Assembly: GCA_017417055.1 (NCBI GenBank)
Contig: JAFPZX010000102.1
Coordinates: 1 to 54,507, forward strand
Reading direction: 5' to 3'
Source: Anaerolineaceae bacterium
GTDB lineage: Bacteria > Chloroflexota > Anaerolineae > Anaerolineales > Anaerolineaceae
Length of the DNA stretch: 54,507 nucleotides
The translations under genes and the position numbers were made by a program. Position 1 is the stretch's first letter. Each line of letters starts with the position of its first letter. Below are positions 14,926 through 34,248 of the stretch, in pieces. The notes under the pieces were generated by a model. It did not search any database. It saw nothing but the letters and a program-made list of their open reading frames with translations, and was not told the DNA's origin.

Positions 14926-15327
14926 TTAAGTCTCACACTCGCTGACTGCTGTGACCTGGGCAAGCGCCCAATCTCCCTGATTGGTGATCGAAACCAGCAG
15001 CTTTGTGATACCCGCAGAATGTAGAATCCCGGAAAGCTCTTCCGTGATCACGATCTCGGGAGAGCCGTCCGGGTTTTTCTTTGTTTCAACGATTCTGAAA
15101 TCGAAAGTTTTTTCCGGTGTCAGGTGCGCAGCAGCCTTGAAGACTGCTTCCTTTACAGCAAACCGTCCGGCAAAAAAGCTGTATTTGTCGGACGATTTTT
15201 CAGCCTCAGCTTTTTCCATGGCTGAAAATGTCCGTTCCGTCAAAGCGCCTTTTGATTGTTTATCAAGTTCGGCAAACTGACTGATGGATACCAGGTCGAT
15301 CCCGATACCGGAAATTTTTTCGTACAT
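14926..15327 (-). CDS. acpS: Holo-acyl-carrier-protein synthase (first copy)
   Basis: The 133-residue product transfers 4'-phosphopantetheine from CoA to a serine of an acyl carrier protein. It shows both AcpS signatures: GIGIDLV near residues 7-13 (metal-binding Asp11) and FAGRFAVKEAVFKA (Glu of the active site). It follows the phosphotransacylase gene by 2 bp and lies close to a free ACP gene, its most likely client. AcpS is normally a single housekeeping gene next to alr or nnrD, so a copy in a catabolic-looking cluster argues that the cluster's carriers need dedicated activation. The ribosome binding site is weak, so translational coupling to the upstream gene is likely. Confidence 0.92.
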   Translation of the reverse strand: MYEKISGIGIDLVSISQFAELDKQSKGALTERTFSAMEKAEAEKSSDKYSFFAGRFAVKEAVFKAAAHLTPEKTFDFRIVETKKNPDGSPEIVITEELSGILHSAGITKLLVSITNQGDWALAQVTAVSECET

Positions 15328-15328
15328 T

Positions 15329-16333
15329 TCAGTTTTTCATCCCTGCCGCACGAACCGCGGAGATGACGATGTTGCCCTTGATCTCGGAAACCGGTGCGCC
15401 GCGGGAGCAGTCACAGACGATACTGTTGAATCCCTGGAGCATCGGGCCGTAAGCGTTCGCGTGTCCGAACTGCTGGATCAGTTTGACCGCGATGTTCCCT
15501 ACATTCAGGTCCGGCCAGATCAGGATGTTCGCTTTCCCGGCGACTTTGCTTTCCCGTTTGACCTTCTTGGCGGCAACTGCCGGAACGATGGCGGCATCCA
15601 GTTGGAATTCCCCGTCGATATTGAGGTCGGGACGCTTTTCCTGAGCGATCTGCAGCGCTTCTTTGACCTTGTCGATCAATTCACCCTGGCCGCTGCCCAG
15701 CGTGGAGTAGCAGACCATTGCGCAGCGCGGTTCCCAATCCAGCAGGTCATGAACCGTGTCACAGGCGGAAATGGCGATATCCGCCAGCTGTTCCGCATTC
15801 GGATTGGTGCAGACGCCGCTGTCACCGACTGCGAGCAAACTGCCTTCGCTGCCTTCATATCCAGGAATGTCGCACAGACCGATGGATGAGATGGTGCTGA
15901 TGCCCGGTTTGAGTCCGATGATCATCTGACCAGCAAGGAGCACGTCGCCTGTGGTGTAGTCGATACCGGCAAAGGTCACGTCGGCTTCTCCGACTTTTTG
16001 CATCGCCATGGCGTAGTAGAGCGGGTCTTCCATCCGGCGTCCGAGAGCTTTTTCCTTCAGCCGGGTGTCTTCCCGGGCGACGAATGCGGTGATGATCTTG
16101 TTTTTATATTCTTCTTCGTGAATGTCAACGATGGTGAAGACTGCGGGATCGTAGCCTCGTTCTTTCGCCGCTGCTTCAATTTCCGCGGCATTGCCGACCA
16201 TAATCGGGATGATGTATCCTTCTTTTCCCGCCTCAAAAGCAGCCTGCATCATCTTTTCGTTCAGCGCTTCCGGAAAAGCGACTTTCTGTGGATTTTGCTT
16301 TGCTTTTTCGTAAATTTTATCCAGTACGCTCAT
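15329..16333 (-). CDS. Phosphate acetyl/acyltransferase (first copy)
   Basis: The 334-residue product belongs to the Pta/Ptb fold family that interconverts acyl thioester and acyl phosphate. Family motifs include the substrate-site run EGSEGSLLAVGDSG, CYSTLGSGQG, and IDGEFQLDAAIVP followed by KANILIWPDLNVGN. Acetyl versus longer acyl use cannot be told from sequence. Start ATG 16333 is chosen over an upstream in-frame TTG because it gives MSVLDKIYEKA with GGAAAG upstream. It is the partner of the butyrate-kinase-like gene at 18744-19850: together they would make ATP from an acyl thioester. Neighbouring ACP and AcpS genes suggest the donor may be acyl-ACP rather than acyl-CoA, which is inference. 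Confidence 0.9.
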   Translation of the reverse strand: MSVLDKIYEKAKQNPQKVAFPEALNEKMMQAAFEAGKEGYIIPIMVGNAAEIEAAAKERGYDPAVFTIVDIHEEEYKNKIITAFVAREDTRLKEKALGRRMEDPLYYAMAMQKVGEADVTFAGIDYTTGDVLLAGQMIIGLKPGISTISSIGLCDIPGYEGSEGSLLAVGDSGVCTNPNAEQLADIAISACDTVHDLLDWEPRCAMVCYSTLGSGQGELIDKVKEALQIAQEKRPDLNIDGEFQLDAAIVPAVAAKKVKRESKVAGKANILIWPDLNVGNIAVKLIQQFGHANAYGPMLQGFNSIVCDCSRGAPVSEIKGNIVISAVRAAGMKN

Positions 16334-16434
16334 TTGTCTTTCCAATTCTTACTCAAATTACATCATGAATAGTTCTCGGTTAGTTATCAATCATTGAGTA
16401 ACAACCGGAGTCCAATATTATGGTCTCCAGCGAG

Positions 16435-16467
16435 CCGGGGACTGTCCCTTTGTGGGACTGTCCCCGG
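16435..16467. repeat. GGGACTG-type hairpin
   Basis: CCGGGGAC-T-GTCCC, a TTTGT loop and GGGAC-T-GTCCCCGG form a 14-bp stem with one T:T mismatch, between the ACP and phosphotransacylase genes. Downstream AGAACCGTCCC resembles the companion sequence of the 13.4- and 14.8-kb copies. Confidence 0.8.
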
Positions 16468-16518
16468 AAGTTTTGGGACACTTAAGAACCGTCCCTTACT
16501 GTCCCAATATACTGGAAG

Positions 16519-16752
16519 TTACAATTCCTGTTCAACCAGGTCGACAAGATCCTTGACGGTTGCGCAGGCAGAAGCGTCCTGGAGCATGATGACTGCGTCC
16601 AATTCGTTTTCGATTTCGGAAACCAGGGCAACCATCTGAACGGATGCACCCTTCAGGTCGGTCTTGAAGTTTGTATCCAGTGTCACATTGTCGGCCTTAT
16701 AAGCAACCGAAACCAGTTCAATGATTTTTTGTTCCAATTCTTTTCTATCCAT
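16519..16752 (-). CDS. Free acyl carrier protein
   Basis: The 77-residue acidic, helical protein has the ACP pattern. Ser37 in LKGASVQMVALVSEIE stands at the phosphopantetheine position, but the usual D-S-L is replaced by A-S-V. A typical recognition helix (ALVSEIENELD) follows, with a C-terminal VKDLVDLVEQEL helix. It is flanked by a phosphotransacylase, an AcpS, a thiolase and its DUF35 partner, not by fatty-acid synthesis genes. RBS AAGGAG. It probably holds the acyl chain cleaved by the thiolase pair. Divergence around the serine suggests it is a specialised carrier that the housekeeping AcpS might not modify well. Confidence 0.85.
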   Translation of the reverse strand: MDRKELEQKIIELVSVAYKADNVTLDTNFKTDLKGASVQMVALVSEIENELDAVIMLQDASACATVKDLVDLVEQEL

Positions 16753-16863: not shown

Positions 16864-16933
16864 CTGGCCATAGATTTGTGTACACTGGCCACAGGCTGCT
16901 GGCCACTAACCACTGACTCCTAACTCCTAACTA
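16864..16933. repeat. Heptanucleotide tract abutting a stop codon
   Basis: Ten successive 7-bp units stay in one register, for example CTGGCCA (three times), CTAACCA, CTAACTC and CTAACTA. The last unit ends on the complement of the TAG stop of the DUF35 gene. The 16753-16863 stretch next to it shows no gene. Confidence 0.75.
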
Positions 16934-17350
16934 TTGATCCTCGTCCAGATCAAAAACGACTGTCTTGAACCCCTGCTCGCGTTCAAAAATCGCGGCGTGA
17001 CAGGTGACGTTCGGCAGCTTGTCCATCAGCTCCTGGCGCTTCTTTTTATTGATCCCGCGCACAACAGCGTTCAGGTGAGCCCCTTCTTCCAGTTCGACTT
17101 CGCAGTAAGCGTATTTGCCGAGGTTCTTGTATTCCGGTTTGGAGGAAAGAGCCGCGGGCATGACGATGGAGTGGATGCGGGCTTTGCCGCTGATCTCGAC
17201 CCATTCCGTCTCATAATTGCCGCATTTGTTGCAGGCGTAAACAGGAGGAAATTCAACATTGCCGCAAACAGGACATTTGCGTCCGAGGATCTTCCCTTCT
17301 TCAAGAGCCTCGTAATAATGTTCAACAACTTTTTCTAATTTGATAGCCAT
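16931..17350 (-). CDS. DUF35 zinc-ribbon/OB-fold thiolase partner
   Basis: The 139-residue product starts with a zinc ribbon (CPVCG and CNKCG around residues 28-44) followed by an OB-fold with KARIHSIVMP and YAYCEVELEEGAHLNAVV. DUF35 proteins bind thiolase-superfamily enzymes and shape a channel for the acyl chain, as in BbsA-BbsB, ChsH2-Ltp2 and archaeal HMG-CoA synthase. The thiolase-like gene lies directly upstream, 21 bp away. Two ATGs are possible, 17359 and 17350. GGAGG sits only two bases from the first and ten from the second, so the second is preferred. Confidence 0.88.
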   Translation of the reverse strand: MAIKLEKVVEHYYEALEEGKILGRKCPVCGNVEFPPVYACNKCGNYETEWVEISGKARIHSIVMPAALSSKPEYKNLGKYAYCEVELEEGAHLNAVVRGINKKKRQELMDKLPNVTCHAAIFEREQGFKTVVFDLDEDQ

Positions 17351-17371
17351 CTCAGTCATTCCTCCTTCGCA

Positions 17372-18727: not shown

Positions 18728-18743
18728 TTTAATTTATCCTTTC

Positions 18744-19850
18744 TTAATCCTCGATCTCGCTCGGGCTCCATCGCGGTTTGCCCGTGTACGTTTTCGGTTG
18801 TTCTTCGCCGCTCAGCACCCGGATCGCGCCGGCTGCCATGGCTTCCAGTTCAAATTCACCCGGATAGGCGGAAACAGGGGCGATCCAGCCGCATCCGTCT
18901 TCGATCGCTTTGACGAGGTCCTTGTTGTGGACCATACCGCCGCCGAGGAGAATGCCATCCACCTGCCCATGCAGGACGCCGGCCATCGCGCCGATATATT
19001 TGACGATTTGGTAGAGCATGGCATCCCAGACTAACTTCGCATAGGCGTTGCCGCTGTCTGCCATCGCGTTGACTTCGCGCGCGTCACTGGTGCCCAGGTG
19101 GCTCACAAATCCGCCGGTCTTCATACAGACGTTTTTGACTTCATTCAGATCTTCTGCCTTCATGCAGTATTTGATCATTTCAGCCGCGGGAATCGCGCCG
19201 CAGCGGGTTGGTGCCATCGGGCCTTCTCCGCCAACGATGTCGTTGCCGTCGATCATCTTGCCTTTGCGGTGGGCTGAAATAGAGATCCCGCCGCCGATGT
19301 GGCAGACGATGTAGTTTTTATCTTCATATTTCCAGCCGTGCGCGCTGCTGTGACGGATGGCGGTCTCTTTGAGATTCAGGGCATGCAGGTGAACATTGCG
19401 GTAAACGCCCTTCAACCCGGTCATCCGTGCTTCCAGTACCAGCTCATCGGTGTCCGGCGGGTTGACGACAAAGGCCGGTTTCCCGTATTGTGACGCAAAA
19501 CCATTGGCAAGCTGGGAACCCAGCTGTGCCGGATGCTGGACACCGTTGGCGCCGCGTTCCGCATGGTCCAGAAGAATATCGTTGACCGCATAGGTGCCGC
19601 CTTCCACAGCCAGCAGTCCGCCGCCTCTGCCGACAAAGGCATCGAAGGAAGAAAGATCGATGCCCTGTTCGTCAAGCGCATGGAGAATTGTTTCTTTCCG
19701 GTAGGGAAGCTGGTCGCTGACTGTGGCGAATTCCTTCAGCTTTTCCGCGTCATGCGACACATTGACGGAAAACAGTTCCTTTTCGCCTTCAAAAGCGCCT
19801 ACCTTGGTGGAGGTTGATCCGGGATTGATAACCAGAATTCTGTAAGTCAT
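18744..19850 (-). CDS. Butyrate-kinase-like acyl kinase (first copy)
   Basis: The 368-residue ASKHA-fold kinase transfers the acyl-phosphate phosphate to ADP. It has an N-terminal phosphate loop (INPGSTSTKVGAF), a central catalytic region ending CHIGGGISISAHRKG, and a C-terminal adenosine-binding LLGGGMVHN. Length and sequence match butyrate/branched-chain acyl kinases better than acetate kinase (about 400 residues). RBS GGAAGGA. It follows the iron-sulfur flavodoxin gene by 24 bp and pairs with the phosphotransacylase at 15.3 kb, closing an ATP-forming step. The true acyl chain is unknown; short straight, branched or aromatic acids are all possible. Confidence 0.9.
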   Translation of the reverse strand: MTYRILVINPGSTSTKVGAFEGEKELFSVNVSHDAEKLKEFATVSDQLPYRKETILHALDEQGIDLSSFDAFVGRGGGLLAVEGGTYAVNDILLDHAERGANGVQHPAQLGSQLANGFASQYGKPAFVVNPPDTDELVLEARMTGLKGVYRNVHLHALNLKETAIRHSSAHGWKYEDKNYIVCHIGGGISISAHRKGKMIDGNDIVGGEGPMAPTRCGAIPAAEMIKYCMKAEDLNEVKNVCMKTGGFVSHLGTSDAREVNAMADSGNAYAKLVWDAMLYQIVKYIGAMAGVLHGQVDGILLGGGMVHNKDLVKAIEDGCGWIAPVSAYPGEFELEAMAAGAIRVLSGEEQPKTYTGKPRWSPSEIED

Positions 19851-19874: not shown

Positions 19875-20822
19875 TCAAACGGTGGGATATTTCTTCTGGA
19901 TGTACTTCTGCTTCTTTTCCATCGCCAGTTTCATGTTCTCCGGGTTGGCGTAGAACATGGCGCCCTGGGTGTAGCCGATCTCATCCAGATGCAGCTGACG
20001 GCCTTCGACTGTGGTTCTGTCCTTCAAGCGGCCGTTTTTCGGGTCGATGATGAACTTCCATTTGCCGTCCACCTTTTCCAGTGTACCGCCGCATCCGCAG
20101 ACCTGACATTCCACTTCGTAGCTGACGCCGTCCCACTGGGGTTCACCGAGAACGAGTGCGTTGGAATGGCAGTTCGGGCACCAGCCCATGTCTTCATCAC
20201 CCAGCCAGTGGCGTTCTTCCACTGGGGTTTGGATGGCGGTCATGATGTTTTCGCCCATTTTGTGTGCGCGGGCCATCAGCTCATCGTTCAGGACACACTG
20301 ACCGGCACCCGGGACGCGGGTGGCAAGGATCATGTCGACAACTTTCATATCGGTTGTGAACATGGCTGCCTGCATGGACTCCAGCGCCATGGACTGCCAT
20401 GCACGGGTGGAACCGCCGACCGCGATCAAACCGGCCAGGCGGGCTCTTCGTTCAATTGCGCCGATAGCTTCCAGGAAGCTGGTTTCGTAAGCAAGACTGC
20501 GCTGGCAGAAGCGGGTGAAAAGTGCGCAGGGCTGCAGGTCATACGTCGGTGCTGAATAGATCACCGCATCCTGATCCAGCATTACGTCCATGATGCGCTT
20601 TTTGTCATCCTTTTTGTCCAGAATACATCCGGCATTCTTTCCTTCGGACATCGCTTTTGTACAGGATGTGCATCCGGTGCAGTCCAGAATGTTGTAATCG
20701 GACAGGTTGACCATGATAATTTCGGCTCCGGCTTCTTCGCAAGCCATTAGCGCTTCTTTCAGCAGAATTTCACTGTTGCTGTTTTTTCTTCCGGCTGTTA
20801 TCCCCATTACTTTATATGCCAT
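19875..20822 (-). CDS. Iron-sulfur flavodoxin with zinc-ribbon tail (first copy)
   Basis: The 315-residue product has an N-terminal flavodoxin-like domain (ITAGRKNSNSEILL) and a cysteine cluster CTGCTSC plus a later Cys near residue 60, as in NADPH-dependent FMN reductase/ISF proteins. Its distal part adds CPNCHS and CQVCGCGG, a zinc-ribbon or rubredoxin-like tail absent from short family members. It shares this architecture with the gene at 21636-22577. It likely passes electrons to a substrate-reducing partner; NADPH use and substrate are inferred only from the family. Very strong RBS AGGAGG. The upstream terminator-like hairpin at 20860 may lower its read-through from the operon. Confidence 0.8.
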   Translation of the reverse strand: MAYKVMGITAGRKNSNSEILLKEALMACEEAGAEIIMVNLSDYNILDCTGCTSCTKAMSEGKNAGCILDKKDDKKRIMDVMLDQDAVIYSAPTYDLQPCALFTRFCQRSLAYETSFLEAIGAIERRARLAGLIAVGGSTRAWQSMALESMQAAMFTTDMKVVDMILATRVPGAGQCVLNDELMARAHKMGENIMTAIQTPVEERHWLGDEDMGWCPNCHSNALVLGEPQWDGVSYEVECQVCGCGGTLEKVDGKWKFIIDPKNGRLKDRTTVEGRQLHLDEIGYTQGAMFYANPENMKLAMEKKQKYIQKKYPTV

Positions 20823-20892: not shown

Positions 20893-21357
20893 TTATTTGA
20901 TGCCGCATGCGGCGTTGGCAGCTTTCATCGCGATCGGAGTCATGATGAAGGCAACAACATACAGGATGAGATAGAGCGGGAGGAAGGTGCTCATGAATGC
21001 ACCGAATACGGGCGGGCGGACTTCCGCCGGTACGCTGCGGAGGTTCCACCAGGTCAGCGGCAAACCGATACCGACAGTGAAGATCAGACAAACCGGCAGG
21101 CTGCCGACAAGATTTCCGGCAAGGCTGTGCGGATCCAGTTTGAACAGTTTCGCGAACCCTTCCTGGATTTTATTGATCGGCAGGATCACATTGATCAGGA
21201 ACGCCAGACAGAAACCGATCAGAATGTTGACCGGCAGGTTCGGTCCAAAAGCCGGCTGATGGTTCAGCAGGTTTGCTGAAATTGACATCACGATGGCCAT
21301 GGGCAGGTCAAGGACGATATTGAAAATGATGATCCATTTTGCGCTTGGTTTTTGCAT
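20893..21357 (-). CDS. Small four-helix membrane protein (DUF2798-like)
   Basis: The 154-residue product has about four hydrophobic helices. Start ATG 21357 (MQKPSAKW) is preferred over the longer open frame to 21474 because an AAGGGA site lies upstream and the extension is not membrane-like. It is paralogous to the 150-residue protein at 27711-28163. Both share a GFCLAFLINVILPI-like second helix, an F-A-x6-P-x2-L loop and a final helix starting near F-x-A-x-x-S-T. Function is unknown. The paired presence beside flavoproteins suggests a membrane anchor or a small transporter, which is speculation. Confidence 0.7.
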   Translation of the reverse strand: MQKPSAKWIIIFNIVLDLPMAIVMSISANLLNHQPAFGPNLPVNILIGFCLAFLINVILPINKIQEGFAKLFKLDPHSLAGNLVGSLPVCLIFTVGIGLPLTWWNLRSVPAEVRPPVFGAFMSTFLPLYLILYVVAFIMTPIAMKAANAACGIK

Positions 21358-21451
21358 TTGAATTTTCCCTTCTGTCGTTTCCTTAACGACATACAAGATC
21401 GTAAAATTGTTGATGTATCTGTTCAGGACGAAGCGCACGGGGACAATTAGC

Positions 21452-21496
21452 TTGTTGTCGCGAAGCCGACACAAGTGATTGCCCTCTGTGTTGCGC
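21452..21496. repeat. Dispersed repeat, copy 1
   Basis: TTGTTGTCGCGAAGCCGAC and the bases after it resemble 36975-37020, where the first 19 bp differ at one position and the rest is looser. Partial inverted symmetry (ACACA with TGTGT) suggests a weak hairpin. Confidence 0.5.
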
Positions 21497-21591: not shown

Positions 21592-21640
21592 GAATCAGGT
21601 CATTTGATTCCTGACACCTGATACCTGATACCTGATTACG
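21592..21640. repeat. Heptanucleotide tract abutting a stop codon
   Basis: Seven 7-bp units in one register include GATACCT twice and GACACCT. The last unit overlaps the TAA stop of the flavodoxin gene at 21636. Confidence 0.75.
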
Positions 21641-22577
21641 CTCTTTCCGGAACGGTCGGCTTGATGAAGTCGCGATACTTGGCCTTGCGGGCCTTGAACT
21701 CATCGCTGTTCTTCTGCAGATCGGCCAGACGTGCTTCATTGACCTGGATATCTTTACCGTGAGCCATCTTACCGGACATGGTGTCGTGTGCCTTGGCATA
21801 TTCTTCTTCAGCGTAAACGATGCGGATCGCGCCATCGACAACTTCCAGTTCACCTTCCATACCGCACAGGCCGCAGATCGCGTGAGTCGTGCCCGGGTTG
21901 ATATAGAAGTTGTTGGTGTGGCAGTGCGGGCAGACGCCTTCCGGACCCTGCCAGGTGGCGTGTTCGATGTCTTTCGCGGCATTTGCCAGGTTGATACCGA
22001 TCTGATGGGCACGGGCAAGCGCTGCGTCATCCATCAGGATGGTCTTGGACCACTGGAATTTATCATTGTCGATGATCTTCCACATCGGGCTCATCGCGAC
22101 CATGCCATGATCCATCTGAACCAGGGAACCCCAGTCGGAACCGCCGACGGCCATGAAGGAGATCACTTTGTCTTTCAGCAGTCTCGGGTCAACGCCCGGG
22201 CCGCCATGTTCCTTGGAAAGCATATCTGCAATCACCAGGTTGCCGCGGTCCATGGAAGGTCCGAAGCGGTCGCAGACGGTGTGGACGATGCCCGGAACGC
22301 CGTTTTCGAAGATCGGGGAGACCATCAGAATCCCATCGGCATCCAGCATTTTGTCCAGCAGCCAGAGAAAATCATCTTTGATGGCGCAGGTTCGTCCGCG
22401 GCCGCTCATGATGGATTTCACACAGGCGATGCATCCGGTACAATGTTTGATATCCAGTTTGTGCAGGTTGATGAATTCAATCTCTGCTCCGGCTTCCTGT
22501 GCACCCATCAAACCTTCTTTGCACATGGAATCGTTGGAACCATTCAGGGTTCCTGAAGAAATACCTAAAATTTTCAT
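21636..22577 (-). CDS. Iron-sulfur flavodoxin with zinc-ribbon tail (second copy)
   Basis: The 313-residue paralogue of the 19875-20822 product has a flavin loop GISSGTLNGSND, the cluster CTGCIAC plus a Cys about 12 residues later, and a C-terminal pair CPHCHT and CGLCG for a second metal. The N-terminal half matches the NADPH-dependent FMN reductase/ISF family, but the tail marks a distinct subfamily. RBS GAGGAG. It lies 84 bp after the NuoF-like gene, so it may receive electrons from that complex. Two copies in one cluster suggest either two reductive steps or a heterodimer. Confidence 0.8.
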   Translation of the reverse strand: MKILGISSGTLNGSNDSMCKEGLMGAQEAGAEIEFINLHKLDIKHCTGCIACVKSIMSGRGRTCAIKDDFLWLLDKMLDADGILMVSPIFENGVPGIVHTVCDRFGPSMDRGNLVIADMLSKEHGGPGVDPRLLKDKVISFMAVGGSDWGSLVQMDHGMVAMSPMWKIIDNDKFQWSKTILMDDAALARAHQIGINLANAAKDIEHATWQGPEGVCPHCHTNNFYINPGTTHAICGLCGMEGELEVVDGAIRIVYAEEEYAKAHDTMSGKMAHGKDIQVNEARLADLQKNSDEFKARKAKYRDFIKPTVPERA

Positions 22578-22661: not shown

Positions 22662-23948
22662 CTAACTGAACGAACCGCAGCGGACCGGTTTCTTCGGCAC
22701 ACGGATGGTTCCGTCCTGTGGAACGATAGCCCCTTCCTCACAGACTTCTGCGCATTTCCCGCAGTTTTCGCACATATCCGGATCGATGATGTGGATGAAC
22801 TTCTTCTTTCCGGTGATGGCGTCTTCATCGCACACATCCAGACAATCGGTACAGCCTGTGCATTTCGCCGGGTCGATGACCGGTTTGCTGAAGGCTTTGC
22901 AGACTCCTGCCGGGCAGCTCTTTTTGACGAAATGGAGTTCCAGCTCCTTGCGGTTGGTGCGGACGGAAGAGACGAATACATTCGCCATTCCCTGCCCGAA
23001 ACTGCAGAATGAGCCGATATGGATCAGCGGACCGATGTCCTCGACCATGGCAAGGTCATCCTTTTTTGCCTTCCCTGCGGCGACCTGGTTGAAGATGTTT
23101 TCAAAATGCCAGGTACCCTCACGGCACAGCACGCATTTCTGACAGGTTTCAGTCCGGGCTCTCTTTGCGAGTTCTTCGGTCAGGTGAGCCATGCAGTCTT
23201 TAGACCCGTAAATCCCGACGTAATCCCACAACGCAGAAGTATCAACTTTGCAGCTGTCCAGCTCCGTGTTGTCCACAAAAGTGCCGGTCAATCCGCCAAG
23301 CAGGACGCTCTTTTCGGCTTTCGCCCCGGATTCAGCCACAATGTCTGCCAGGGATGTGCCGGTCTTGAATTCACCCAATTTTGTCCCGTTCGGAGTGCGG
23401 ACGGCGACCAGTTTGGTTTCTTCATATCCCGGCTGTGCGGCTGCATAAACACGAACAAGCGTTTCTGCATCCACCACAACGGTCGGTTTATCCTGAAGCC
23501 CTTCAGAGGGAAAATCTTTCGGAAGCGGAGCGCTGCGAAGTTCACCGCTCAGGATCATATGATACAGTGCAGATTCTTCCCGTAAAACCATTGATCTTTC
23601 TGCATTTACAGTTTTAACTCCGGAAAGTTCAAAATTGATTTCCGGTGTTTTCACCAGCCAGCATTCTGTGGCACCGGCGGCTTCTGCGACTGCTTTGAAA
23701 GCGGCCTTCAGTTTGTCCGCCTGTGTTTCAGCAAGGCAGGCACTGATGGGAGCATCCGCGTCATCGGCTGCCATGTTCAGAATAACGACGCCATTGCCTC
23801 TTTCGTGGACGTCTTTCAGCGTTTCCGTGAAGGGAATGGCATATTTCGCGGGAATGTTCAGGTTCAACACGGTCTGTGCGGAAATTTCTCCGGCATAAGG
23901 TGCAGTCAGGATTTCAGCCTGTGAGGCGGTTAAATTCATCTTTTCCAT
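22662..23948 (-). CDS. NuoF-like iron-sulfur protein lacking NADH/FMN motifs
   Basis: The 428-residue product aligns with the C-terminal half of NuoF/HydB subunits. It has a degenerate REESALYHM stretch where GEETAL would be, then KPTVVVDAETLV, an SLBB domain (about 185-250), the N3-type cluster CQKCVLCREGTW with a later CSFGQG, and two ferredoxin motifs at the C-terminus (CTGCTDCLDVC, CENCGKCAEVC). The N-terminal 125 residues lack the glycine-rich FMN/NADH motifs, so this subunit probably cannot oxidise NADH itself. It is encoded 2 bp after the NuoG-GltD fusion, whose flavin domain could supply that function. RBS GGAGG before ATG 23948. Confidence 0.85.
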   Translation of the reverse strand: MEKMNLTASQAEILTAPYAGEISAQTVLNLNIPAKYAIPFTETLKDVHERGNGVVILNMAADDADAPISACLAETQADKLKAAFKAVAEAAGATECWLVKTPEINFELSGVKTVNAERSMVLREESALYHMILSGELRSAPLPKDFPSEGLQDKPTVVVDAETLVRVYAAAQPGYEETKLVAVRTPNGTKLGEFKTGTSLADIVAESGAKAEKSVLLGGLTGTFVDNTELDSCKVDTSALWDYVGIYGSKDCMAHLTEELAKRARTETCQKCVLCREGTWHFENIFNQVAAGKAKKDDLAMVEDIGPLIHIGSFCSFGQGMANVFVSSVRTNRKELELHFVKKSCPAGVCKAFSKPVIDPAKCTGCTDCLDVCDEDAITGKKKFIHIIDPDMCENCGKCAEVCEEGAIVPQDGTIRVPKKPVRCGSFS

Positions 23949-26191: not shown

Positions 26192-27652
26192 TCAGTCTTC
26201 CAGTTCGTTGACATAATCGGATGCGGAATCACCGGCAAAGCGGCCTGTGTTCACGCAATAGCCCATGGTGTTGCCCGGGAGCAGGAACATGTAGGAGTCA
26301 CCGTAGATGGTGCAGGTATCGGTACCGGCAGCAAAGAGGCCCGGAACCTTGTTCCAGTCATTATCAAGAACCTGAGCGAACTCGTTGATCTTGATGCCGC
26401 CCAGCGTACCATAAGCGCCGGGACGGAACTTGCCTGCGTAGAACGGGGCTTTTTCGATTGGCTTCATGTACTTCGCGTCCTTGTAGAACAGGGTGTCGCG
26501 GGATTCGCACATTTCGTTGTATTCATCGACCTGTTCGACCAGCGCATCCGGATCGATTCCCAGTTTTTCAGCCAGTTCTTCGATGGTGTCAGCTTTGACG
26601 ACATCCGGGTTGTCATTGGCAATAGAGGCTTCCACGGCATCGAGGAAATCGGAAACATCTTCCGGATGGTGGACGAAGTTGACCACATCCACGCCCTTCT
26701 TCATATACTGCTTGGCGATCTTGGAGTCGATGATGGAATAACCGATCGCACCTTTCTGGAAGGAGATCGCATTGCCGCAGAAGGTGGTGTTCTGCATTTC
26801 TTCTTCGTTGATGAAGCGTTTGCCCAGCTGGTTGACCATCAGGTTCGGCTGCATAAAGACAGACGGGATGCAGTCCGGACCGAAGTCGGAGTTCGGCAGG
26901 ATGTACATCATTTCAACATTCATTGGGGTGGTGGCTGCACCGGCTTCCATGGCCATGCGGATACCGTCGCCCTTCAAACCCGGGATGGCAAAGTTGAACA
27001 TGTTCTCGCGGAAGGTGTATCCGGTGCGTTCATGGATCATCGCCGGATTGTCGCCGGCGCCGCCGGTGGCCACGATGACTGCCTTGCAGCTGATCTGGAT
27101 TTCTTCACCGTCTTTGTCGGTGGCGAGAACGCCGCAGATCTTTCCTTCTTCGTCCTTCAAAATCTTCTTTGCAGGAGTTTCAAAGAGGATTTGAGCTCCG
27201 TTTTCCTGAGCGTAATCAGCCATGTGCTTATTCATGATGGCGCCGCCGTTGCGGCCGATGCCGCCGTTGACTGCCACGATGTGCCAGGTGGCTTCAGACT
27301 TCGGGAAGTATTTGTAAGCGCCGGCGAATTCTACGCCGCAGGTTTCTTCCAGCCATTTGATCGTGTCGCCGGAATTTTCAAAATAGCGCTTGACCAGACG
27401 TGCATCGGTGCGCCAGTGTGTATATTCTACGAATTTTTTGAAAGCACGTTCAACATCGATGTCGACCATCATGTCGCTCTGCTGTTTGGTTCCGATACCC
27501 AAAGGACCCATACCCATGTTTGCGGCACCGCCAACGACATTCGCCTTTTCCAACAAGATGACATTCATTCCATTTTCCGCGGACTGCGCGGTTGCGGCTA
27601 AACCGGAAGGACCACCGCCAATGACTACAACATCAGCTTCCATTGTTTTCAT
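26192..27652 (-). CDS. FAD-dependent oxidoreductase, fumarate-reductase type
   Basis: The 486-residue flavoprotein opens with the dinucleotide loop VVVIGGGPSGLAATAQSA (about 7-24) and ends with a GTDTCTIYGDSYMFLLPGN region typical of the FrdA/urocanate reductase/ketosteroid dehydrogenase superfamily. It has no signal peptide, heme domain or covalent FMN domain, so it is cytoplasmic and must receive electrons from a partner. The adjacent NuoG-GltD and NuoF-like proteins are the obvious donors. It likely reduces an activated C=C bond in the substrate. RBS GAGGAG. The 58-bp gap to the membrane protein gene upstream is compatible with one transcript. Confidence 0.88.
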   Translation of the reverse strand: MKTMEADVVVIGGGPSGLAATAQSAENGMNVILLEKANVVGGAANMGMGPLGIGTKQQSDMMVDIDVERAFKKFVEYTHWRTDARLVKRYFENSGDTIKWLEETCGVEFAGAYKYFPKSEATWHIVAVNGGIGRNGGAIMNKHMADYAQENGAQILFETPAKKILKDEEGKICGVLATDKDGEEIQISCKAVIVATGGAGDNPAMIHERTGYTFRENMFNFAIPGLKGDGIRMAMEAGAATTPMNVEMMYILPNSDFGPDCIPSVFMQPNLMVNQLGKRFINEEEMQNTTFCGNAISFQKGAIGYSIIDSKIAKQYMKKGVDVVNFVHHPEDVSDFLDAVEASIANDNPDVVKADTIEELAEKLGIDPDALVEQVDEYNEMCESRDTLFYKDAKYMKPIEKAPFYAGKFRPGAYGTLGGIKINEFAQVLDNDWNKVPGLFAAGTDTCTIYGDSYMFLLPGNTMGYCVNTGRFAGDSASDYVNELED

Positions 27653-27710: not shown

Positions 27711-28163
27711 TCAAGGTTTGTTTGTACCATAACGATCACAAAACTTCTCGATCGGCTTTTCGATGATCGAAGCGCCGACGATCCCGACAATCAGCAGCTG
27801 GAAATATGTGGAAATCCAGGCCGGAAACAGATTCGGTCCGACACCGACATGGATCAGCGCCTGTCCGAAACTGACAATCGTAACAAAAATAAAATTGATA
27901 ACCAGGTTCCTTGCCAGCAGGTCCGCAAGGGTCCCCGGTTTTGTTTTACAAACTTCTCTGGCAAATTTCACACTAAGCGGACCCACCGGTATCAGGATTG
28001 CGGCAATCGTGTTGATCGTGAACGCGCAGCAGCAGCCGATCACCCAGCCCTGCAAGGTGTCACCGCCATTCAGGATGGTCGCTGCCGTGTTGATGATCAG
28101 CGCCATGCAGGTGTTTGTGATGATGTTCCATTTAAAGAACCATTCATTGTTATATTTCATCAT
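27711..28163 (-). CDS. Small four-helix membrane protein (paralogue)
   Basis: The 150-residue product has about four hydrophobic helices and is related to the protein at 20893-21357 (shared GCCCAFTINTIAAI-like second helix, F-A-x-E/K loop, ISTYFQLLIV final segment). It overlaps the end of the hydrolase gene by 4 bp (ATGA-type), a sign of translational coupling. The second codon is also ATG, so the start may be 28160. Function is unknown. A role near the FAD oxidoreductase, such as membrane docking or substrate exchange, would be consistent with its position. Confidence 0.72.
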   Translation of the reverse strand: MMKYNNEWFFKWNIITNTCMALIINTAATILNGGDTLQGWVIGCCCAFTINTIAAILIPVGPLSVKFAREVCKTKPGTLADLLARNLVINFIFVTIVSFGQALIHVGVGPNLFPAWISTYFQLLIVGIVGASIIEKPIEKFCDRYGTNKP

Positions 28164-29134
28164 TCAAATTTCTCTTTCAGAAATTCTTCTGTGAGTCGTA
28201 TCGCCTCATCAGCCTGTTCCCGGAAGGATGGGGCATGTGTTTTTCTCACTTCTTCGGGTGTTGCGAGATAGGCTTCTTCATTTGCGGCATCTTCCACATA
28301 GCCGTGGTGCATACCGGGCATGACATGGACTTTCGTTTCGACACCTGCTGCACGCAGATGTTCTGCGTAGAGCAGTCCTTCTTCCTTGAGGGAATCCCGT
28401 TCCGCAGGCAGGATCAATGCCGGTGCGGTCCCCCGAAGTTCTTCGGATGACGCACATACCGGTGAAACATAGGCATTGGAACGCTCTTCTTCTTTTGAAT
28501 AGAGCAGCGTGAATGCGCGCATCACATCATTAGCCATGTCGCAGTCATAATGCTTTTTTTCATTCGGCAGATGGACAGCGTCCAGATAAGGATAATGAAG
28601 CACCTGTGCTTTTAGTGAAAATTCGCCATTAAGTACAGTCTGCATCGCTGCCGCGGTGCTGAGTGTTGCACCAGCGGAATATCCCATCACGGCCATACGC
28701 TCCGGATCGATCCCGTATTCTGATGATTTCTGCCACATACGGCGGATAACCTGGTAGGCATCTTTTACTGCGGCAGGAAATGGATTTTCCGGAGCTAATC
28801 GGTAATTAACACCGATAACATGGATTCCGAGATCTCTTGCGATCCGTTCACACAGCCTGTCAGCTTTTTCCGCGTCGCCCATCATGAATCCGCCGCCATG
28901 AAATTCAAACAAGGCAGGACGAAGGCCGGAAAGCAAATTCCCCTGTGTGTCCTTAGCCTGATGGAAACAGATGCTGATCTTACGTCCCGGCAGAGCAAAT
29001 TCTGTCGTTTCGGCAAAACGCTTCTGCGACAGAACCATCTGACGGTTATAGGCGCGAAGATCCGGAAGCATGTCCAAAAAGCCCCTGAGCGCAGGATCTG
29101 TAATTTCAGGACAAAGCCGTTCCCGCCTTGCCAT
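28160..29134 (-). CDS. Alpha/beta-hydrolase, hormone-sensitive-lipase family
   Basis: The 324-residue esterase-like protein has the oxyanion motif HGGGFMMG (about 79-86), the nucleophile elbow MGYSAGAT (Ser in G-Y-S-A-G near residue 150), an Asp in PAERDSLKEE and a His in MPGMHHGY, completing the triad of HSL-family carboxylesterases. It would hydrolyse an ester, lactone or amide of a small acid. No signal peptide is seen. It starts 2 bp past the acyl kinase stop, with AAGGAG overlapping that gene's end, so it is firmly inside the operon. It is the second hydrolase of the cluster besides the ACP-CocE fusion. Confidence 0.88.
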   Translation of the reverse strand: MARRERLCPEITDPALRGFLDMLPDLRAYNRQMVLSQKRFAETTEFALPGRKISICFHQAKDTQGNLLSGLRPALFEFHGGGFMMGDAEKADRLCERIARDLGIHVIGVNYRLAPENPFPAAVKDAYQVIRRMWQKSSEYGIDPERMAVMGYSAGATLSTAAAMQTVLNGEFSLKAQVLHYPYLDAVHLPNEKKHYDCDMANDVMRAFTLLYSKEEERSNAYVSPVCASSEELRGTAPALILPAERDSLKEEGLLYAEHLRAAGVETKVHVMPGMHHGYVEDAANEEAYLATPEEVRKTHAPSFREQADEAIRLTEEFLKEKFE

Positions 29135-31322: not shown

Positions 31323-31352
31323 AGTTTACTTCCTCAATCCGGGGATTTGTGA

Positions 31353-31727
31353 TCATCCCTCGGAAATGGCAAAAGCCTGGGCATAACCATCGTCATAAGA
31401 GATGCTTATGTGGACGGTTTTTATTGCTTTTCCGGCAGCGTGCCGCAGCAGTGCACCGGATAATGTAACGTGAGGAGCGCCGGTGTCATCATCAAGAATT
31501 TCGATTTCATTGAGCCGGGCATGTTCCGGATCAGCCCCGAGCGCTTTGAAGACAGCTTCTTTCGCGGCATATCGGGTGCAGAAATATTCTCCGGGGAGTG
31601 AACGGTTTTTTGCCTGTTCCTGCTCCTTTTTTGTGAAGGTTTTCTCCCGGAAAGGGTCCCCGGGCTGAAGGACAGATTCCGGAATCCTTTCCATTTTCAA
31701 AAAATCAGTTCCGACCCCGATGATCAC
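31353..31727 (-). CDS. acpS: Holo-acyl-carrier-protein synthase (second copy)
   Basis: The 124-residue phosphopantetheinyl transferase has IIGVGTDFLKMERI at the N-terminus and YFCTRYAAKEAVFKALG in the centre (Asp and Glu metal/active-site positions). The start is GTG at 31727, with GAGGAG six bases upstream, giving the family-typical N-terminus (M)IIGVGTD. The upstream ATG at 31751 lacks a ribosome binding site and adds eight non-conserved residues. It lies between the tandem-ACP hydrolase and the second phosphotransacylase, so it probably arms the two fused carrier domains. Confidence 0.92.
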   Translation of the reverse strand: MIIGVGTDFLKMERIPESVLQPGDPFREKTFTKKEQEQAKNRSLPGEYFCTRYAAKEAVFKALGADPEHARLNEIEILDDDTGAPHVTLSGALLRHAAGKAIKTVHISISYDDGYAQAFAISEG

Positions 31728-31754
31728 AAAATGCTCCTCTGCAATACGCATTTA

Positions 31755-31784: not shown

Positions 31785-31791
31785 GATGATT

Positions 31792-34248
31792 TTAGCGATA
31801 GACGTAATCTCCGGCTTTGTACTTCGGAGGGATCACCGGTACCTGGATGAAGGACTGATACTGTCCGCCGGTATAAATGATCTGGCGGCCGTGGTTGTCT
31901 GTATCCCAGGCGAGCGGTTCGAACCAACCCTCACGGATATACCGTCCGGCGATCTGGACACGAAGCTTTTCACCCTTGTGCCAAGTGCGTGCGGACGGGA
32001 CGATTTCGATATCGACCGGGACGATCTCACCCGGCTGAACCTTGAGTTCACGGCGGTGGGCCATGACCGGCTGAACCATCAGACCCTTGATGGTCTGACA
32101 TTCTTTCGGATCCAGCTCGCGGTGGGAGATGCGGCATTTGCCCCAGGCGCCCGGATGCGGTTCATTCAGGGTGTACCACGGGATCCAGTTGCCGTTTTCG
32201 TCAGCTTTCTGGATGTTGATGAACATGTCCATATCGTTGTAGCTTTCCGGTGCTACGAACAGGTGCAGGTACATGTAGCCGGTGAGTTCAGTGTCTTCAT
32301 TGAAGGTCATATCGAATTCGACCTGACCGGTGTTGCCGTCATAAGCGACTGAACTTTCCACAGAAACCGGTTCGTCGCGCATTGTCAGGTTCTTTGGATC
32401 AGATGCGTCGAAGTAGAATTTCTTGTATTCCGTGCGCTTGAGCGGGAATTCATTTTCCGGGCGGCGGACCTGGTAGTCGCAGTCGTAGGCATCCATGATG
32501 TCCAGACGGACACGCGGGGTCATTTCCCAGCCATTGTGGATGTCCTTCAGATAGCGGTCATAGAAGCGTTTCAGGTCTTCGAGGTTTTCCGGCTGATAGG
32601 TATCCGGCCATTCAAAATCGCGGTGAGCGCGCAGCCATTTGAGCTTGGTCTTCGCTTTGCGGAAGGCCTGGACGGAACCGCGCAGATGGAAGTGTGAGAA
32701 ACCGGCTGTCTGATAGACCGGGCAGATGACCTTGGAGAAATCAGGCCGTTTGTCTTCCCAGTAACCGTTCATCAGCGGATATTTTACAGCCATATCGACC
32801 TGGCTGTCGACACCGCCGGTACCGGTGACCTGGGCGGAGATGAATTTGTTGAAGGAAAGGGCAGGAACGCCGCCTTCGTAGAAAGATTCGCGGTAAAGAT
32901 CGGTGGTGCATTCCCATGGTGCGATGCACTTCAAGTGCGGCGGCTGCATGGAGGCAATGCCCCATTGGTGCATGGCGACACCGGAGTTCCCCGCCATACC
33001 GACATTCCCGTTGCACCAGTGCTGTACGCCCAGCCATTCCACGAAGTCGTAGCCGTCTTCGCGGTCCTGATGGGTGAACATATGGACGTTGCCTTCAGAG
33101 TGACCGGCGCCGCGGACATCAACATTAGCCACAGCATAGCCCTGATAGCACCAGTACATCGGATCCGGTGATTCGAATTTCGCAAATTTGGAAACGGTGT
33201 GCGGCGGCACGCCCATGATCTGCCATTCGCTCATACCTTCGCCCGGGCGTTTGCCGAACCAGGACCAGGAGACAATGGCAGGATATTTCTGACTTTCATC
33301 TTTCGGACGATAGATATCGCAGTAGATGGTGACGCCATCGCGCATCTTGACCGGAACATCCTGTTCGCAGAGAATGCCGGGGGCACATTCATAAACGCGC
33401 TGGTTGAACGCCGGGCAGAAGCCCTGTCCCATACGGGCCATCGGGTCATCGGATTCGGACAGGTCAACACTCGGATCCACTGCGACCGGCTTGCGGGCAA
33501 CCATATAAATGGCGTCCAGTTCTTCGCCCTGGAAGGTTTCCCGCAGGGTGAAGCGTTCGCGCAGTGCCAGTTCATCATCATGATCGGATTTCGCGGAGGT
33601 TGCTCCCTCTTCCGCGGCAGGAGAGGCAGCCGGTGCTCCTGTCGGAGCTGAAGCCGGCGCAGCTGCCGGTACGGAGGCGGCTGAATCAGCTTCTTCACCA
33701 AGACATTCGGTCAGGACATAATCAACAGCCTCACCGAAGGTAGCCTGTCTGCGGAAAGACATAAACGGAATCTCTGTGTCAAATTCATCTTCGAGGAAGG
33801 TGGTAATTTGTGAATATTGGGTGGATTTGGCGTTGCAGTCTTCTACAAAGCGGGTGGCTTCGGAGAATTCTTCCGGCTTTTTCCCGAAGAGCTGGGATGC
33901 GCGCTCGACCAATTTATCCAGAATTTCCTTGCGGCGTCCGGTCGCAGGTGCAGCTGCCGGTGCGGCTGCCGGAGCCGGTGCTGCTGCAGTGTCTGCTTCT
34001 TCACCGAGACATTCGGTCAGCACATAATCAACGGCATCGCCGAAAGTAGCCTGACGGCGGAAGGACATAAAGGGAATTTCCGTGTCAAATTCATCCTCAA
34101 GAAATGTTGTGATCTGGGAGTACTGGGTCGATTTAGCGTTGCAGTCCTCCACGAATCGGGTATCTTCGGAAAACTCCGCAGGGCTCTTACCGAAAAGCTG
34201 GGAAGCCCGTTCGATGAGTTTTTCATAGATCTCCTGTCTGATACTCAT
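31792..34248 (-). CDS. Tandem acyl-carrier domains fused to CocE/NonD hydrolase
   Basis: The 818-residue product has three parts. Two acyl-carrier-like domains lie at about 3-86 and 105-188, repeated with a 102-residue period. Each has the candidate phosphopantetheine serine in DCNAKSTQYSQ (Ser40 and Ser142) and helix II TTFLEDEFDTEIPF. An Ala/Pro linker runs over 189-220. A CocE/NonD (peptidase S15-type) hydrolase fills the rest, with DVRGAGHSEG, the nucleophile elbow GMAGNSGVAM (Ser422) and a C-terminal jelly-roll. Such esterases cut acyl esters and amides. Fusion to carriers suggests the acyl group is passed to or held on the protein's own pantetheine arms. Start ATG 34248 has AGGAGG upstream; an in-frame start at 34284 lacks one. 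Confidence 0.9.
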   Translation of the reverse strand: MSIRQEIYEKLIERASQLFGKSPAEFSEDTRFVEDCNAKSTQYSQITTFLEDEFDTEIPFMSFRRQATFGDAVDYVLTECLGEEADTAAAPAPAAAPAAAPATGRRKEILDKLVERASQLFGKKPEEFSEATRFVEDCNAKSTQYSQITTFLEDEFDTEIPFMSFRRQATFGEAVDYVLTECLGEEADSAASVPAAAPASAPTGAPAASPAAEEGATSAKSDHDDELALRERFTLRETFQGEELDAIYMVARKPVAVDPSVDLSESDDPMARMGQGFCPAFNQRVYECAPGILCEQDVPVKMRDGVTIYCDIYRPKDESQKYPAIVSWSWFGKRPGEGMSEWQIMGVPPHTVSKFAKFESPDPMYWCYQGYAVANVDVRGAGHSEGNVHMFTHQDREDGYDFVEWLGVQHWCNGNVGMAGNSGVAMHQWGIASMQPPHLKCIAPWECTTDLYRESFYEGGVPALSFNKFISAQVTGTGGVDSQVDMAVKYPLMNGYWEDKRPDFSKVICPVYQTAGFSHFHLRGSVQAFRKAKTKLKWLRAHRDFEWPDTYQPENLEDLKRFYDRYLKDIHNGWEMTPRVRLDIMDAYDCDYQVRRPENEFPLKRTEYKKFYFDASDPKNLTMRDEPVSVESSVAYDGNTGQVEFDMTFNEDTELTGYMYLHLFVAPESYNDMDMFINIQKADENGNWIPWYTLNEPHPGAWGKCRISHRELDPKECQTIKGLMVQPVMAHRRELKVQPGEIVPVDIEIVPSARTWHKGEKLRVQIAGRYIREGWFEPLAWDTDNHGRQIIYTGGQYQSFIQVPVIPPKYKAGDYVYR

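What the first reader, a model, noticed from the sequence alone, without database searches (positions are those of the whole stretch)
14926..34248. Duplicated, ACP-linked acyl-phosphate catabolic cluster with no visible CoA-activating enzyme
Eighteen minus-strand genes include two AcpS, two phosphotransacylases, two butyrate-kinase-like enzymes, a free ACP, a hydrolase with two built-in ACP domains, a thiolase with its DUF35 partner, and a complete reductive flavoprotein set. ACPs normally serve biosynthesis. Here they sit with enzymes that make acyl phosphate and ATP, and no ketosynthase, acyltransferase, CoA ligase or CoA transferase is present. The simplest reading is catabolism of acyl groups on carrier proteins with two substrate-level phosphorylation exits. 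I know of no described pathway of this form.
Basis: partly seen in the sequence, partly recalled or inferred. Interest (0 to 1): 0.92.

Follow-up and report, generated by a model that had tools for sequence, protein, structure and literature searches.

The report
Carrier-protein ATP harvest from plant polyphenols
A gene cluster shared by many gut and rumen bacteria looks built to break plant polyphenol-type compounds, hold the freed acid on a small carrier protein instead of coenzyme A, and pass it on to make ATP; the parts are known but the combination seems undescribed, and no activity has yet been shown.

Summary
In detail: 18 minus-strand genes with two AcpS, two Pta, two butyrate kinases, a free ACP and a CocE hydrolase carrying two ACP domains.

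It is not an oddity of one genome. Thiolase-DUF35-ACP-Pta is consecutive in 59 of 67 testable relatives. A second module, CocE-ACP-Pta, occurs in cultured Lachnospiraceae. Fusions (CocE-ACP, DUF35-ACP, thiolase-DUF35) tie the parts together. Module Ptas form their own clade: 78 of 78 keep the catalytic Asp/Ser/Arg and none keeps the CoA-phosphate-binding arginine that 17 of 17 other Ptas keep. The ACP serine is kept in 80 of 80.

The substrate lead: window 21636-22577 is an orthologue of flavone reductase FLR (415 bits to PDB 7d38); a few relatives carry C-glycoside deglycosidase or phloretin/DAPG-hydrolase genes beside the module.

Best reading: an acyl-enzyme (Cys thiolase or Ser CocE) cleaves reduced polyphenols such as dihydrochalcones, hands the acyl group to a dedicated ACP, and Pta plus kinase turn acyl-ACP into acid plus ATP. 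Function and direction are inferred; no activity is shown. The cluster is a Bacillota-like island in a Chloroflexota genome.

The parts
14926..15327 (-). AcpS1, holo-ACP synthase
   Evidence: Pfam ACPS 54.2 bits; NCBIfam TIGR00516 63 (59.8)
15329..16345 (-). Pta1, thiolase-module phosphotransacylase
   Evidence: PF01515 299.7 bits; module clade; Leu at the CoA beta-phosphate Arg position
16519..16752 (-). free ACP, Ser37 in KGASVQM
   Evidence: PP-binding 30.8 bits; Ser conserved
16931..17359 (-). DUF35 (zinc ribbon) partner of the thiolase
   Evidence: zf-ChsH2 31.9 bits
17372..18727 (-). thiolase-fold acyltransferase, Cys104, Asn347, His397
   Evidence: Thiolase_C_1 81.3 bits; model matches the DUF35-partnered group incl. 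PhlC; residues 81 of 81
18744..19850 (-). Buk1, butyrate-kinase family
   Evidence: NF002834 418.8 bits, cut-off 222
19875..20822 (-). FMNred1, distant FLR relative (flavodoxin-like reductase)
   Evidence: FMN_red 38.3 bits; 104.7 bits to FLR 7d38
20893..21474 (-). Mem193, small hydrophobic (probable membrane) protein
   Evidence: no family; 73% in G013; membrane nature read from sequence
21636..22577 (-). FMNred2, flavone reductase (FLR) orthologue
   Evidence: 415 bits, E 2e-123 to PDB 7d38; 7D38-7D3B are FLR
22662..23948 (-). NuoF-like iron-sulfur subunit with 4Fe-4S domains
   Evidence: NADH_4Fe-4S 61.3 bits, Fer4
23951..26101 (-). NuoG-N/GltD-like NAD(P)H electron-input protein
   Evidence: Fer2_4, Fer4_20, Pyr_redox_2
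26192..27652 (-). FAD_binding_2 reductase, nearest model vinyl phenol reductase but below cut-off
   Evidence: PF00890 182.3 bits; NF053717 323 of 600
27711..28163 (-). Mem150, small hydrophobic protein
   Evidence: no family; relative near the module in 11 of 80 loci
28160..29134 (-). alpha/beta hydrolase (esterase)
   Evidence: Abhydrolase_3 199.2 bits
29137..30249 (-). Buk2, butyrate-kinase family
   Evidence: NF002834 415.5 bits
30324..31322 (-). Pta2, CocE-module phosphotransacylase
   Evidence: PF01515 289.7 bits; Met at the CoA Arg position
31353..31751 (-). AcpS2
   Evidence: ACPS 54.8 bits
31792..34248 (-). ACP-ACP-CocE fusion (ORF open to TTG 34284); nucleophile Ser434 (numbering of the 830-aa ORF) in GNSGV
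   Evidence: CocE_NonD 210.2, ACP NF002150 73.6 bits in two stretches; Ser and His kept
13455..14687 (-). MFS transporter, probable end of the operon
   Evidence: MFS_1 132.7 bits; follows AcpS1 also in G013
34329..35525 (-). 398-aa hydrophobic protein, probable transporter
   Evidence: no family; 95% in G013 beside CocE-ACP
35880..36923 (+). AraC-type regulator, divergent
   Evidence: HTH_18 82.2 bits; relative (63%) inside the G013 cluster

Best explanation
Two parallel CoA-free, ATP-conserving acyl-cleavage modules inside a polyphenol-reducing pathway. (1) NAD(P)H electrons pass through the GltD/NuoF-like proteins to FLR-type and FAD reductases, which saturate enone bonds of a flavonoid-like substrate [FLR orthology shown by sequence; electron route inferred]. 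(2) The reduced aryl ketone, e.g. a dihydrochalcone of the phloretin type, is cleaved by the DUF35-partnered thiolase: Cys104 takes the acyl group and the phenol leaves, a reversed Friedel-Crafts acylation like that of PhlC [residues shown; reaction inferred]. The CocE protein does the same through a serine, on an ester or a C-acyl bond [inferred]. (3) The acyl group moves to the phosphopantetheine thiol of a dedicated ACP, charged by AcpS or an Sfp-type enzyme [serine and co-location shown]. (4) Pta, catalytic residues intact but CoA-phosphate arginines lost, phosphorolyses acyl-ACP to acyl phosphate [residues shown; activity inferred]. (5) Butyrate-kinase-type enzymes give free acid and ATP [family shown]. 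It would replace hydrolysis (as by phloretin hydrolase), which conserves no energy, with ATP recovery.
For: Order: thiolase-(DUF35)-ACP-Pta consecutive in 59 of 67 loci not near a contig end; Buk within 4.5 kb on the same strand in 67 of 80. Distant copies: G071, and thiolase-DUF35-ACP-Pta-kinase-AcpS in G209 (thiolase 31%). Second module: CocE+ACP+Pta in 5 of 10 CocE loci. Fusions: CocE-ACP (window, G013), DUF35-ACP in 4 proteins, thiolase-DUF35 in L073 and L078. Pta: Arg135-position Arg in 17/17 other Ptas, 0/78 module; Arg89 column 17/17 vs 0/78; catalytic Asp, Ser, Arg 78/78; 7 further Ptas agree on Arg135. ACP Ser 80/80. PPTase found in 22 of 80 loci. FLR orthologue; FLR-superfamily gene in 47 of 80 loci. 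Deglycosidase CGDB in 4 of 80 thiolase and 3 of 10 CocE loci. Phy-family gene between two thiolase-(DUF35-ACP) sets in G564. PhlC forms acyl-Cys from an acylphloroglucinol without CoA (passages of PMC6392133).
Against: No activity, mass or expression data. Arg89/Arg135 sit in CoA site 2, thought non-catalytic; their mutation costs P. gingivalis Pta only 58% and 21% of activity (passages of PMC6461089). No PPTase was found in 29 of 49 loci over 15 kb. FLR orthologues at 45% or more occur in only 3 of 80 thiolase loci (L035, L058, L076). CGDB in 4 of 80 is not far above what 0-8 copies per genome would give, and neither the window genome nor G013 has any. Four of ten CocE loci (L158-L161) lack ACP and Pta. 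Five of 67 thiolase loci have no Pta next to ACP. The thiolase matches CoA-using enzymes (6esq, BbsB) as well as PhlC. In G013 the GltD/NuoF/FAD-reductase trio is a different variant (36-51%). Direction cannot be read from sequence.
Confidence: 0.6

Rival explanations
1. Reverse flow: Buk and Pta are an activating system that loads a carboxylic acid (for example a cinnamate-like acid) onto ACP at the cost of ATP, for reduction on the carrier by the flavoproteins or for C-acylation by the PhlC-like thiolase.
For: All steps are reversible in principle; PlsX/Fak (recalled) link acid, acyl phosphate and ACP in that direction; the FAD reductase is nearest to vinyl phenol reductase, below its cut-off; a biosynthetic relative, PhlABC, exists.
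Against: FLR, C-glycoside deglycosidase, PucR or AraC regulators and MFS genes near the modules suggest catabolism; an acyl-ACP thioesterase and a Phy-family hydrolase sit near some module variants, which fits unloading.
Confidence: 0.17
2. Ordinary CoA metabolism: Pta uses acyl-CoA made elsewhere, and the ACPs are structural or regulatory partners.
For: Several DUF35-partnered thiolases nearest in structure use CoA; catalytic Pta residues are unchanged.
Against: ACP lies next to Pta in 59 of 67 loci and is fused to CocE or DUF35; Arg is gone from both CoA-phosphate positions in 78 of 78 module Ptas; ACP serine kept 80 of 80.
Confidence: 0.15
3. Same mechanism, other substrate: not a flavonoid but another ketone or ester (fatty acyl, terpenoid, drug-like), the FLR-type reductases serving other enones. 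(Overlaps with the mechanism of the best explanation.)
For: Most loci have only distant FLR relatives or none; the G209 locus has no match to the window's reductases in the 20 kb read.
Against: FLR orthologue at 415 bits in the window; deglycosidase and Phy neighbours in some relatives.
Confidence: 0.35
4. Artefact of binning or assembly: the cluster is a contaminating piece.
For: GC 52.7% against 45.7% and 41.7% in the flanks; codon usage and Pta1 closest to Lachnospiraceae.
Against: Both flanks match the genome's other contigs in codon usage (0.96-0.97); a second genome of the genus carries the same families on a 126-kb contig, 8 of 18 proteins at 93-97% and the others at 36-90%.
Confidence: 0.03

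Closest known systems
Pta-AckA / Ptb-Buk substrate-level phosphorylation
   Same: Pta and acetokinase-family enzymes, acyl phosphate, ATP
   Different: carrier is a dedicated ACP by inference; Pta clade separate and CoA-phosphate arginines lost
PlsX / FakAB acyl-ACP-acyl phosphate exchange (recalled)
   Same: interconverts acyl-ACP, acyl phosphate and acid
   Different: both Ptas here match PTA_PTB and no PlsX family was listed; context is not lipid synthesis
PhlABC, phloroglucinol Friedel-Crafts acyltransferase of Pseudomonas protegens
   Different: no PhlA-type subunit among the 18 genes; ACP, Pta and kinase follow
Flavonoid route FLR, CHI, EnoR or Fcr, phloretin hydrolase of gut bacteria (PMC7862272, PMC11170127, PMC11868195, passages)
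   Same: FLR orthologue; dihydrochalcone-type cleavage proposed
   Different: no Phy-family match in the (incomplete) genomes G000, G013 and G071; cleavage by acyl transfer, ATP kept
Citrate lyase and malonate decarboxylase (recalled)
   Same: catabolic use of an ACP thioester
   Different: lyase or decarboxylation cycle on a special prosthetic group, no acyl phosphate
Benzoylsuccinyl-CoA thiolase BbsAB
   Different: CoA thiolysis in toluene degradation (recalled)

Membership tests
Phosphotransacetylase (PF01515) | profile match and catalytic Asp/Ser/Arg (P. gingivalis 309/311/312) | tested here: met
   299.7 and 289.7 bits; 78 of 78 distinct module sequences
CoA-dependent housekeeping Pta | CoA-phosphate-binding Arg89 and Arg135 | tested here: not met
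   Arg in 17 of 17 other full-length Ptas, 0 of 78 module at both columns; another alignment puts window Arg91 at Arg89
PlsX | PlsX profile match | tested here: not met
   only PTA_PTB listed for both Ptas in Pfam and no PlsX in NCBIfam
Butyrate kinase | above curated cut-off | tested here: met
   418.8 and 415.5 against 222; substrate not tested
Acyl carrier protein | phosphopantetheine Ser in its motif | tested here: met
   80 of 80 module ACPs; modification itself not testable
DUF35-partnered thiolase/acyltransferase (PhlC, BbsB, archaeal AACT) | fold, nucleophilic Cys, GH-motif His, adjacent DUF35 | tested here: met
PhlABC acyltransferase | PhlA-type third subunit | tested here: not met
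   only one thiolase-family protein among the 18
PhlABC acyltransferase | C-acyl transfer to or from phloroglucinol | not testable with these tools
   needs assay
Flavone reductase FLR | full-length match to the characterised enzyme | tested here: met
   415 bits, query 1-312 of 313; activity not tested
Phloretin hydrolase / DAPG hydrolase (PF18089) | profile match in the window's genome | tested here: not met
   0 in G000 (85% complete), G013, G071; 4 of 28 genomes positive
CocE/NonD serine hydrolase | nucleophile Ser and catalytic His | tested here: met
   both columns kept in 14 of 14; the usual Asp position (recalled) is not Asp, read from the alignments

The most novel reading that the evidence does not exclude
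A CoA-free mode of energy conservation: covalent acyl-enzymes (Cys thiolase or Ser hydrolase) feed dedicated carrier proteins, and a carrier-protein-specific phosphotransacylase clade plus kinases turn C-C and ester bonds of dietary polyphenols into ATP, replacing hydrolysis in Lachnospiraceae, Oscillospiraceae and, by transfer, rumen Chloroflexota.
Probability: 0.5. Interest if true: 0.93.

Novelty: categorically new. Interest (0 to 1): 0.86.

Why it matters
If true, gut and rumen anaerobes gain ATP from a bond that the known enzyme (phloretin hydrolase) simply hydrolyses, which would explain why bacteria invest in flavonoid breakdown. It would add ACP to CoA as a carrier for substrate-level phosphorylation, give a function to a Pta clade that annotation would call phosphate acetyltransferase and to ACPs and AcpS that it would assign to lipid synthesis, and supply marker genes for polyphenol degraders that searches for Phy would miss.

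Tried and rejected
PlsX identity of the Ptas: no such match. A lipid or polyketide gene set: no FAS/PKS partner genes seen among the 18. Misbinning: rejected on flank codon usage and the G013 twin. Loss of the second thiolase Cys as a sign of non-thiolase chemistry: dropped, because the solved DUF35-partnered thiolases aligned show no Cys there either (read by eye). Lack of Phy as proof of replacement: dropped as proof, because the genomes were not drawn at random and the general rate of Phy in the family was not measured. The tally of two CocE_ACP loci is wrong by one: in L089 the hit is a second 79-aa ACP, not a CocE; L076 is a true CocE-ACP. Of the eight new Pta-like ORFs, seven were counted and agree; L175, a Ptb-like, very long-branched one (also without Arg there), was left out. 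Ptb rows (5 distinct) were left out of the Arg counts. The Pta trees are midpoint-rooted, and the tool warns of long branches that meet. Paper searches: nine were made; seven of them held 'acyl carrier protein' as a term (all but 39 and 63). Their listings (at most 10-20 titles and abstract starts each) showed no ACP-Pta-kinase catabolic module; most subscription papers and all preprints are outside the library, so this is not proof of absence. A tenth allowed search was not made.


Full report
WHAT IS THERE. In order of transcription: ACP-ACP-CocE, AcpS2, Pta2, Buk2, esterase, Mem150, FAD reductase, NuoG/GltD-like, NuoF-like, FMNred2, Mem193, FMNred1, Buk1, thiolase, DUF35, ACP, Pta1, AcpS1. 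An MFS gene follows, a 398-aa hydrophobic protein precedes, and an AraC regulator diverges. In the own genome the only two PTA_PTB matches are these, and one further AcpS lies elsewhere. In the genus (14 genomes) full-length PTA_PTB matches occur only here and in G013, two each; three others have one partial match each (112-123 bits).

CONSERVATION. A scan of one genome for each of 84,980 species with a five-row thiolase alignment gave 245 relatives, of which the best 80 were kept. In these 80 loci, several cut by contig ends, similarity to window genes called DUF35 in 74, ACP in 71, Buk in 70, Pta in 69, GltD-like in 40, NuoF-like in 36, FAD reductase in 35 and AcpS in 9 (thiolase 80 by construction). 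Of 67 loci not near a contig end, 59 have thiolase-(DUF35)-ACP-Pta consecutive on one strand. Eight do not: L065 has an extra small ORF, and in L066 and L084 my caller missed an ACP that is there, so these three fit on inspection; L029, L035, L061, L072 and L089 have no Pta next to ACP. Thirteen were too near an end. The hosts named are mostly Lachnospiraceae, with Oscillospiraceae, other Clostridia, Floccifex porci and a Chloroflexi MAG. Among 301 genomes of the window's own order, 4 including G000 had the thiolase at E<=1e-40. G071 has thiolase-DUF35-ACP-Pta-Buk-FAD reductase-GltD-NuoF with an Sfp-type PPTase nearby; G209 has thiolase-DUF35-ACP-Pta-kinase-AcpS with the thiolase at 31% and a 420-aa kinase that looks acetate-kinase-like by eye; G159 shows thiolase-DUF35-ACP-Pta up to its contig end. 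In a sample of 299 Lachnospiraceae genomes, 10 carry such thiolases at E<=1e-100, several as paralogues, so the trait is patchy.

SECOND MODULE. The window's CocE half is also modular. S. arabinosiphila (L141) has AcpS, TetR-like, CocE, a separate ACP, Pta, Buk and MFS; M. glycyrrhizinilyticus (L139) and C. citroniae (L140) have CocE, ACP and Pta, L140 with Buk. In a sample of 250 Lachnospiraceae genomes 8 carry CocE at E<=1e-80. Over the ten CocE loci read (L139-L141, L155-L161), ACP is present in six and Pta in five; L155 has ACP and AcpS, some 6 kb from CocE, without Pta; L158 has only Buk; L159-L161 have none of the three. In L157 CocE stands where thiolase-DUF35 stands in other operons (ACP, CocE, Pta, Buk, esterase, DUF1097, FLR orthologue, Mem193, FAD reductase, GltD). 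Fusions that join the parts: CocE with two ACPs in the window and G013; thiolase-DUF35 in L073 and L078 (DUF35 part 65% identical); DUF35 with one or two ACPs in L166, L167, L169, L177 (the zinc-ribbon model is just under its cut-off in L167 and L177).

PTA SIGNATURE. A tree of 121 rows (100 distinct) puts the module Ptas in one clade apart from the other Ptas of the same genomes (SH-aLRT 98 without G209/G159); a mixture-model tree of 42 rows gives 96/96 for the 23 module rows in it. Both are midpoint-rooted and the tool warns of long branches. All 16 genomes have a separate, higher-scoring Pta. Residues named in the P. gingivalis Pta paper (PMC6461089, passages only) were mapped through the alignment, allowing for an offset of 4 in the chain numbering. 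The Arg135 (CoA beta-phosphate) column is Arg in 17 of 17 other full-length Ptas and in 0 of 78 distinct module sequences; the Arg89 column (3'-phosphate) is 17 of 17 against 0 of 78; the catalytic Asp, Ser and Arg are 78 of 78. The pairwise alignment places window Arg91 against Arg89, so for Pta1 a neighbouring Arg may remain. Seven Ptas from further loci agree on the Arg135 loss. The caveat is that this CoA site is considered non-catalytic and its mutation is mild in the paper.

ACP AND PPTASE. The serine is present in 80 of 80 module ACPs plus one other own ACP (81 rows). The usual DSL motif (recalled) is replaced by GASVQM-like (thiolase type) or AKS/PKS-like (CocE type) motifs, which may be why dedicated PPTases travel along: AcpS in 9 and Sfp-type in 13 of 80 loci (22 in all; 20 of 49 loci over 15 kb). 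In 29 of those 49 none was found within the stretch held.

SUBSTRATE. FMNred2 matches PDB 7d38 over its residues 1-312 at 415 bits; 7D38-7D3B are the flavone reductase of Flavonifractor plautii (PMC7862272, passages). FMNred1 is a distant relative (104.7 bits). FLR-superfamily genes (28% or more over 250 aa) lie in 47 of 80 loci, close orthologues (45% or more) in 3 of 80 and in L157. C-glycoside deglycosidase beta subunits (PF19906, 125 and 133 bits in L155 and L156; 97.6 in L161's genome) occur in L155, L156, L161 and in thiolase loci L023, L066, L072, L081. These genes run at 0-8 copies per genome (21 of 28 genomes have one) and are absent from G000 and G013, so the thiolase association is suggestive only. 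L172 joins a deglycosidase-alpha relative (29%), Gfo/Idh, FAD reductase, GltD, NuoF, ACP, thiolase, DUF35, an FLR relative (34%) and an Sfp-type PPTase on one strand. In G564 a DAPG/phloretin-hydrolase-family gene (252.7 bits) lies between two thiolase-(DUF35-ACP) sets, with Pta and Buk. The published route (PMC11170127, PMC11868195, passages) ends with phloretin hydrolase; neither paper's text holds 'acyl carrier' or 'thiolase'.

MECHANISM. I therefore read the cluster as reduction of a flavonoid-like enone, cleavage by acyl-enzyme formation, transfer to ACP, phosphorolysis and ATP formation, done twice with two kinds of acyl-enzyme. Shown: families, order, fusions, residues, FLR orthology. 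Inferred: every reaction, the direction and the exact substrate. I put about 0.7 on ACP being the Pta substrate, 0.65 on a polyphenol pathway and 0.4 on dihydrochalcone cleavage itself; the 0.6 given to the best explanation is for it as the leading account of carrier, catabolic direction and substrate class, not for each step.

ORIGIN. The G013 twin is the contig titled as an uncultured Chloroflexi MAG, RUG13159 (the rumen origin is recalled from the RUG name). The twin has 8 of the 18 proteins at 93-97%, the others at 36-90%, the GltD/NuoF/FAD-reductase trio being a different variant. The cluster has GC 52.7% against 45.7% and 41.7% in the flanks; its codon usage correlates 0.93 with two Blautia loci and 0.70-0.85 with the flanks and own contigs, while the flanks correlate 0.96-0.97 with own contigs. 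Pta1 nests among Bacillota. This fits lateral transfer from Lachnospiraceae-like donors.

NOVELTY. Every enzyme family is known. The combination, a dedicated carrier protein between an acyl-enzyme and a Pta/kinase pair in a catabolic operon, was not seen in the listings of the seven library searches that held 'acyl carrier protein'. I rate it categorically new as a pathway design, on genomic evidence only.

Noticed in passing
13455-35525: Compositional island (cluster GC 52.7%, flanks 45.7 and 41.7%) with Lachnospiraceae-like codon usage inside a Chloroflexota genome; likely lateral transfer between phyla.
   Followed up: partly
L169 3380-4111 and L169 9319-11730: An acyl-ACP thioesterase (67.9 bits) lies in the same stretch as a Pta-Buk-MFS set and a thiolase-(DUF35-ACP) set, a possible hydrolytic exit.
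   Followed up: no
L166 15751-16752: URO-D-type protein (58.8 bits) beside a module variant; similar-looking ORFs in L167, L169 and L175 (by eye) may be O-demethylation methyltransferases for methoxylated aromatics.
   Followed up: no
L170 2986-11901: Two Ptas, a kinase and two tandem thiolase-DUF35 pairs in one stretch, with no ACP found by similarity to the window's free ACP.
   Followed up: partly
L089 5203-12000: Two complete ACP/thiolase/DUF35 sets, 49% and 71% thiolase, around one Buk-Pta pair.
   Followed up: no
L030 15543-16394: MBL-fold-like protein next to the Sfp-type PPTase; relatives in 16 of the stretches searched, in L041 in one ORF with the PPTase; role unknown.
   Followed up: no
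L028 14270-14824: DUF1097 membrane protein follows Buk in many modules (40 of the stretches searched, 38 of them among the 80 thiolase loci); candidate transporter.
   Followed up: partly
8040-13128: Two neighbouring proteins: 8040-10271 has a solute-binding family-3 and a GGDEF domain; 10168-13128 looks similar with an added EAL-like part, by eye only.
   Followed up: no
39456-52773: Exopolysaccharide-type cluster: NusG-like, DegT aminotransferase, several ATP-grasp proteins, sugar transferase, glycosyltransferase, Wzy; with an AAA-ATPase_like/PDDEXK_9 gene inside at 45953-47557.
   Followed up: no
1808-7778: GH32-like protein, small FMN reductase, carboxymuconolactone decarboxylase family protein, two aldo/keto reductases and a TetR regulator.
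   Followed up: no
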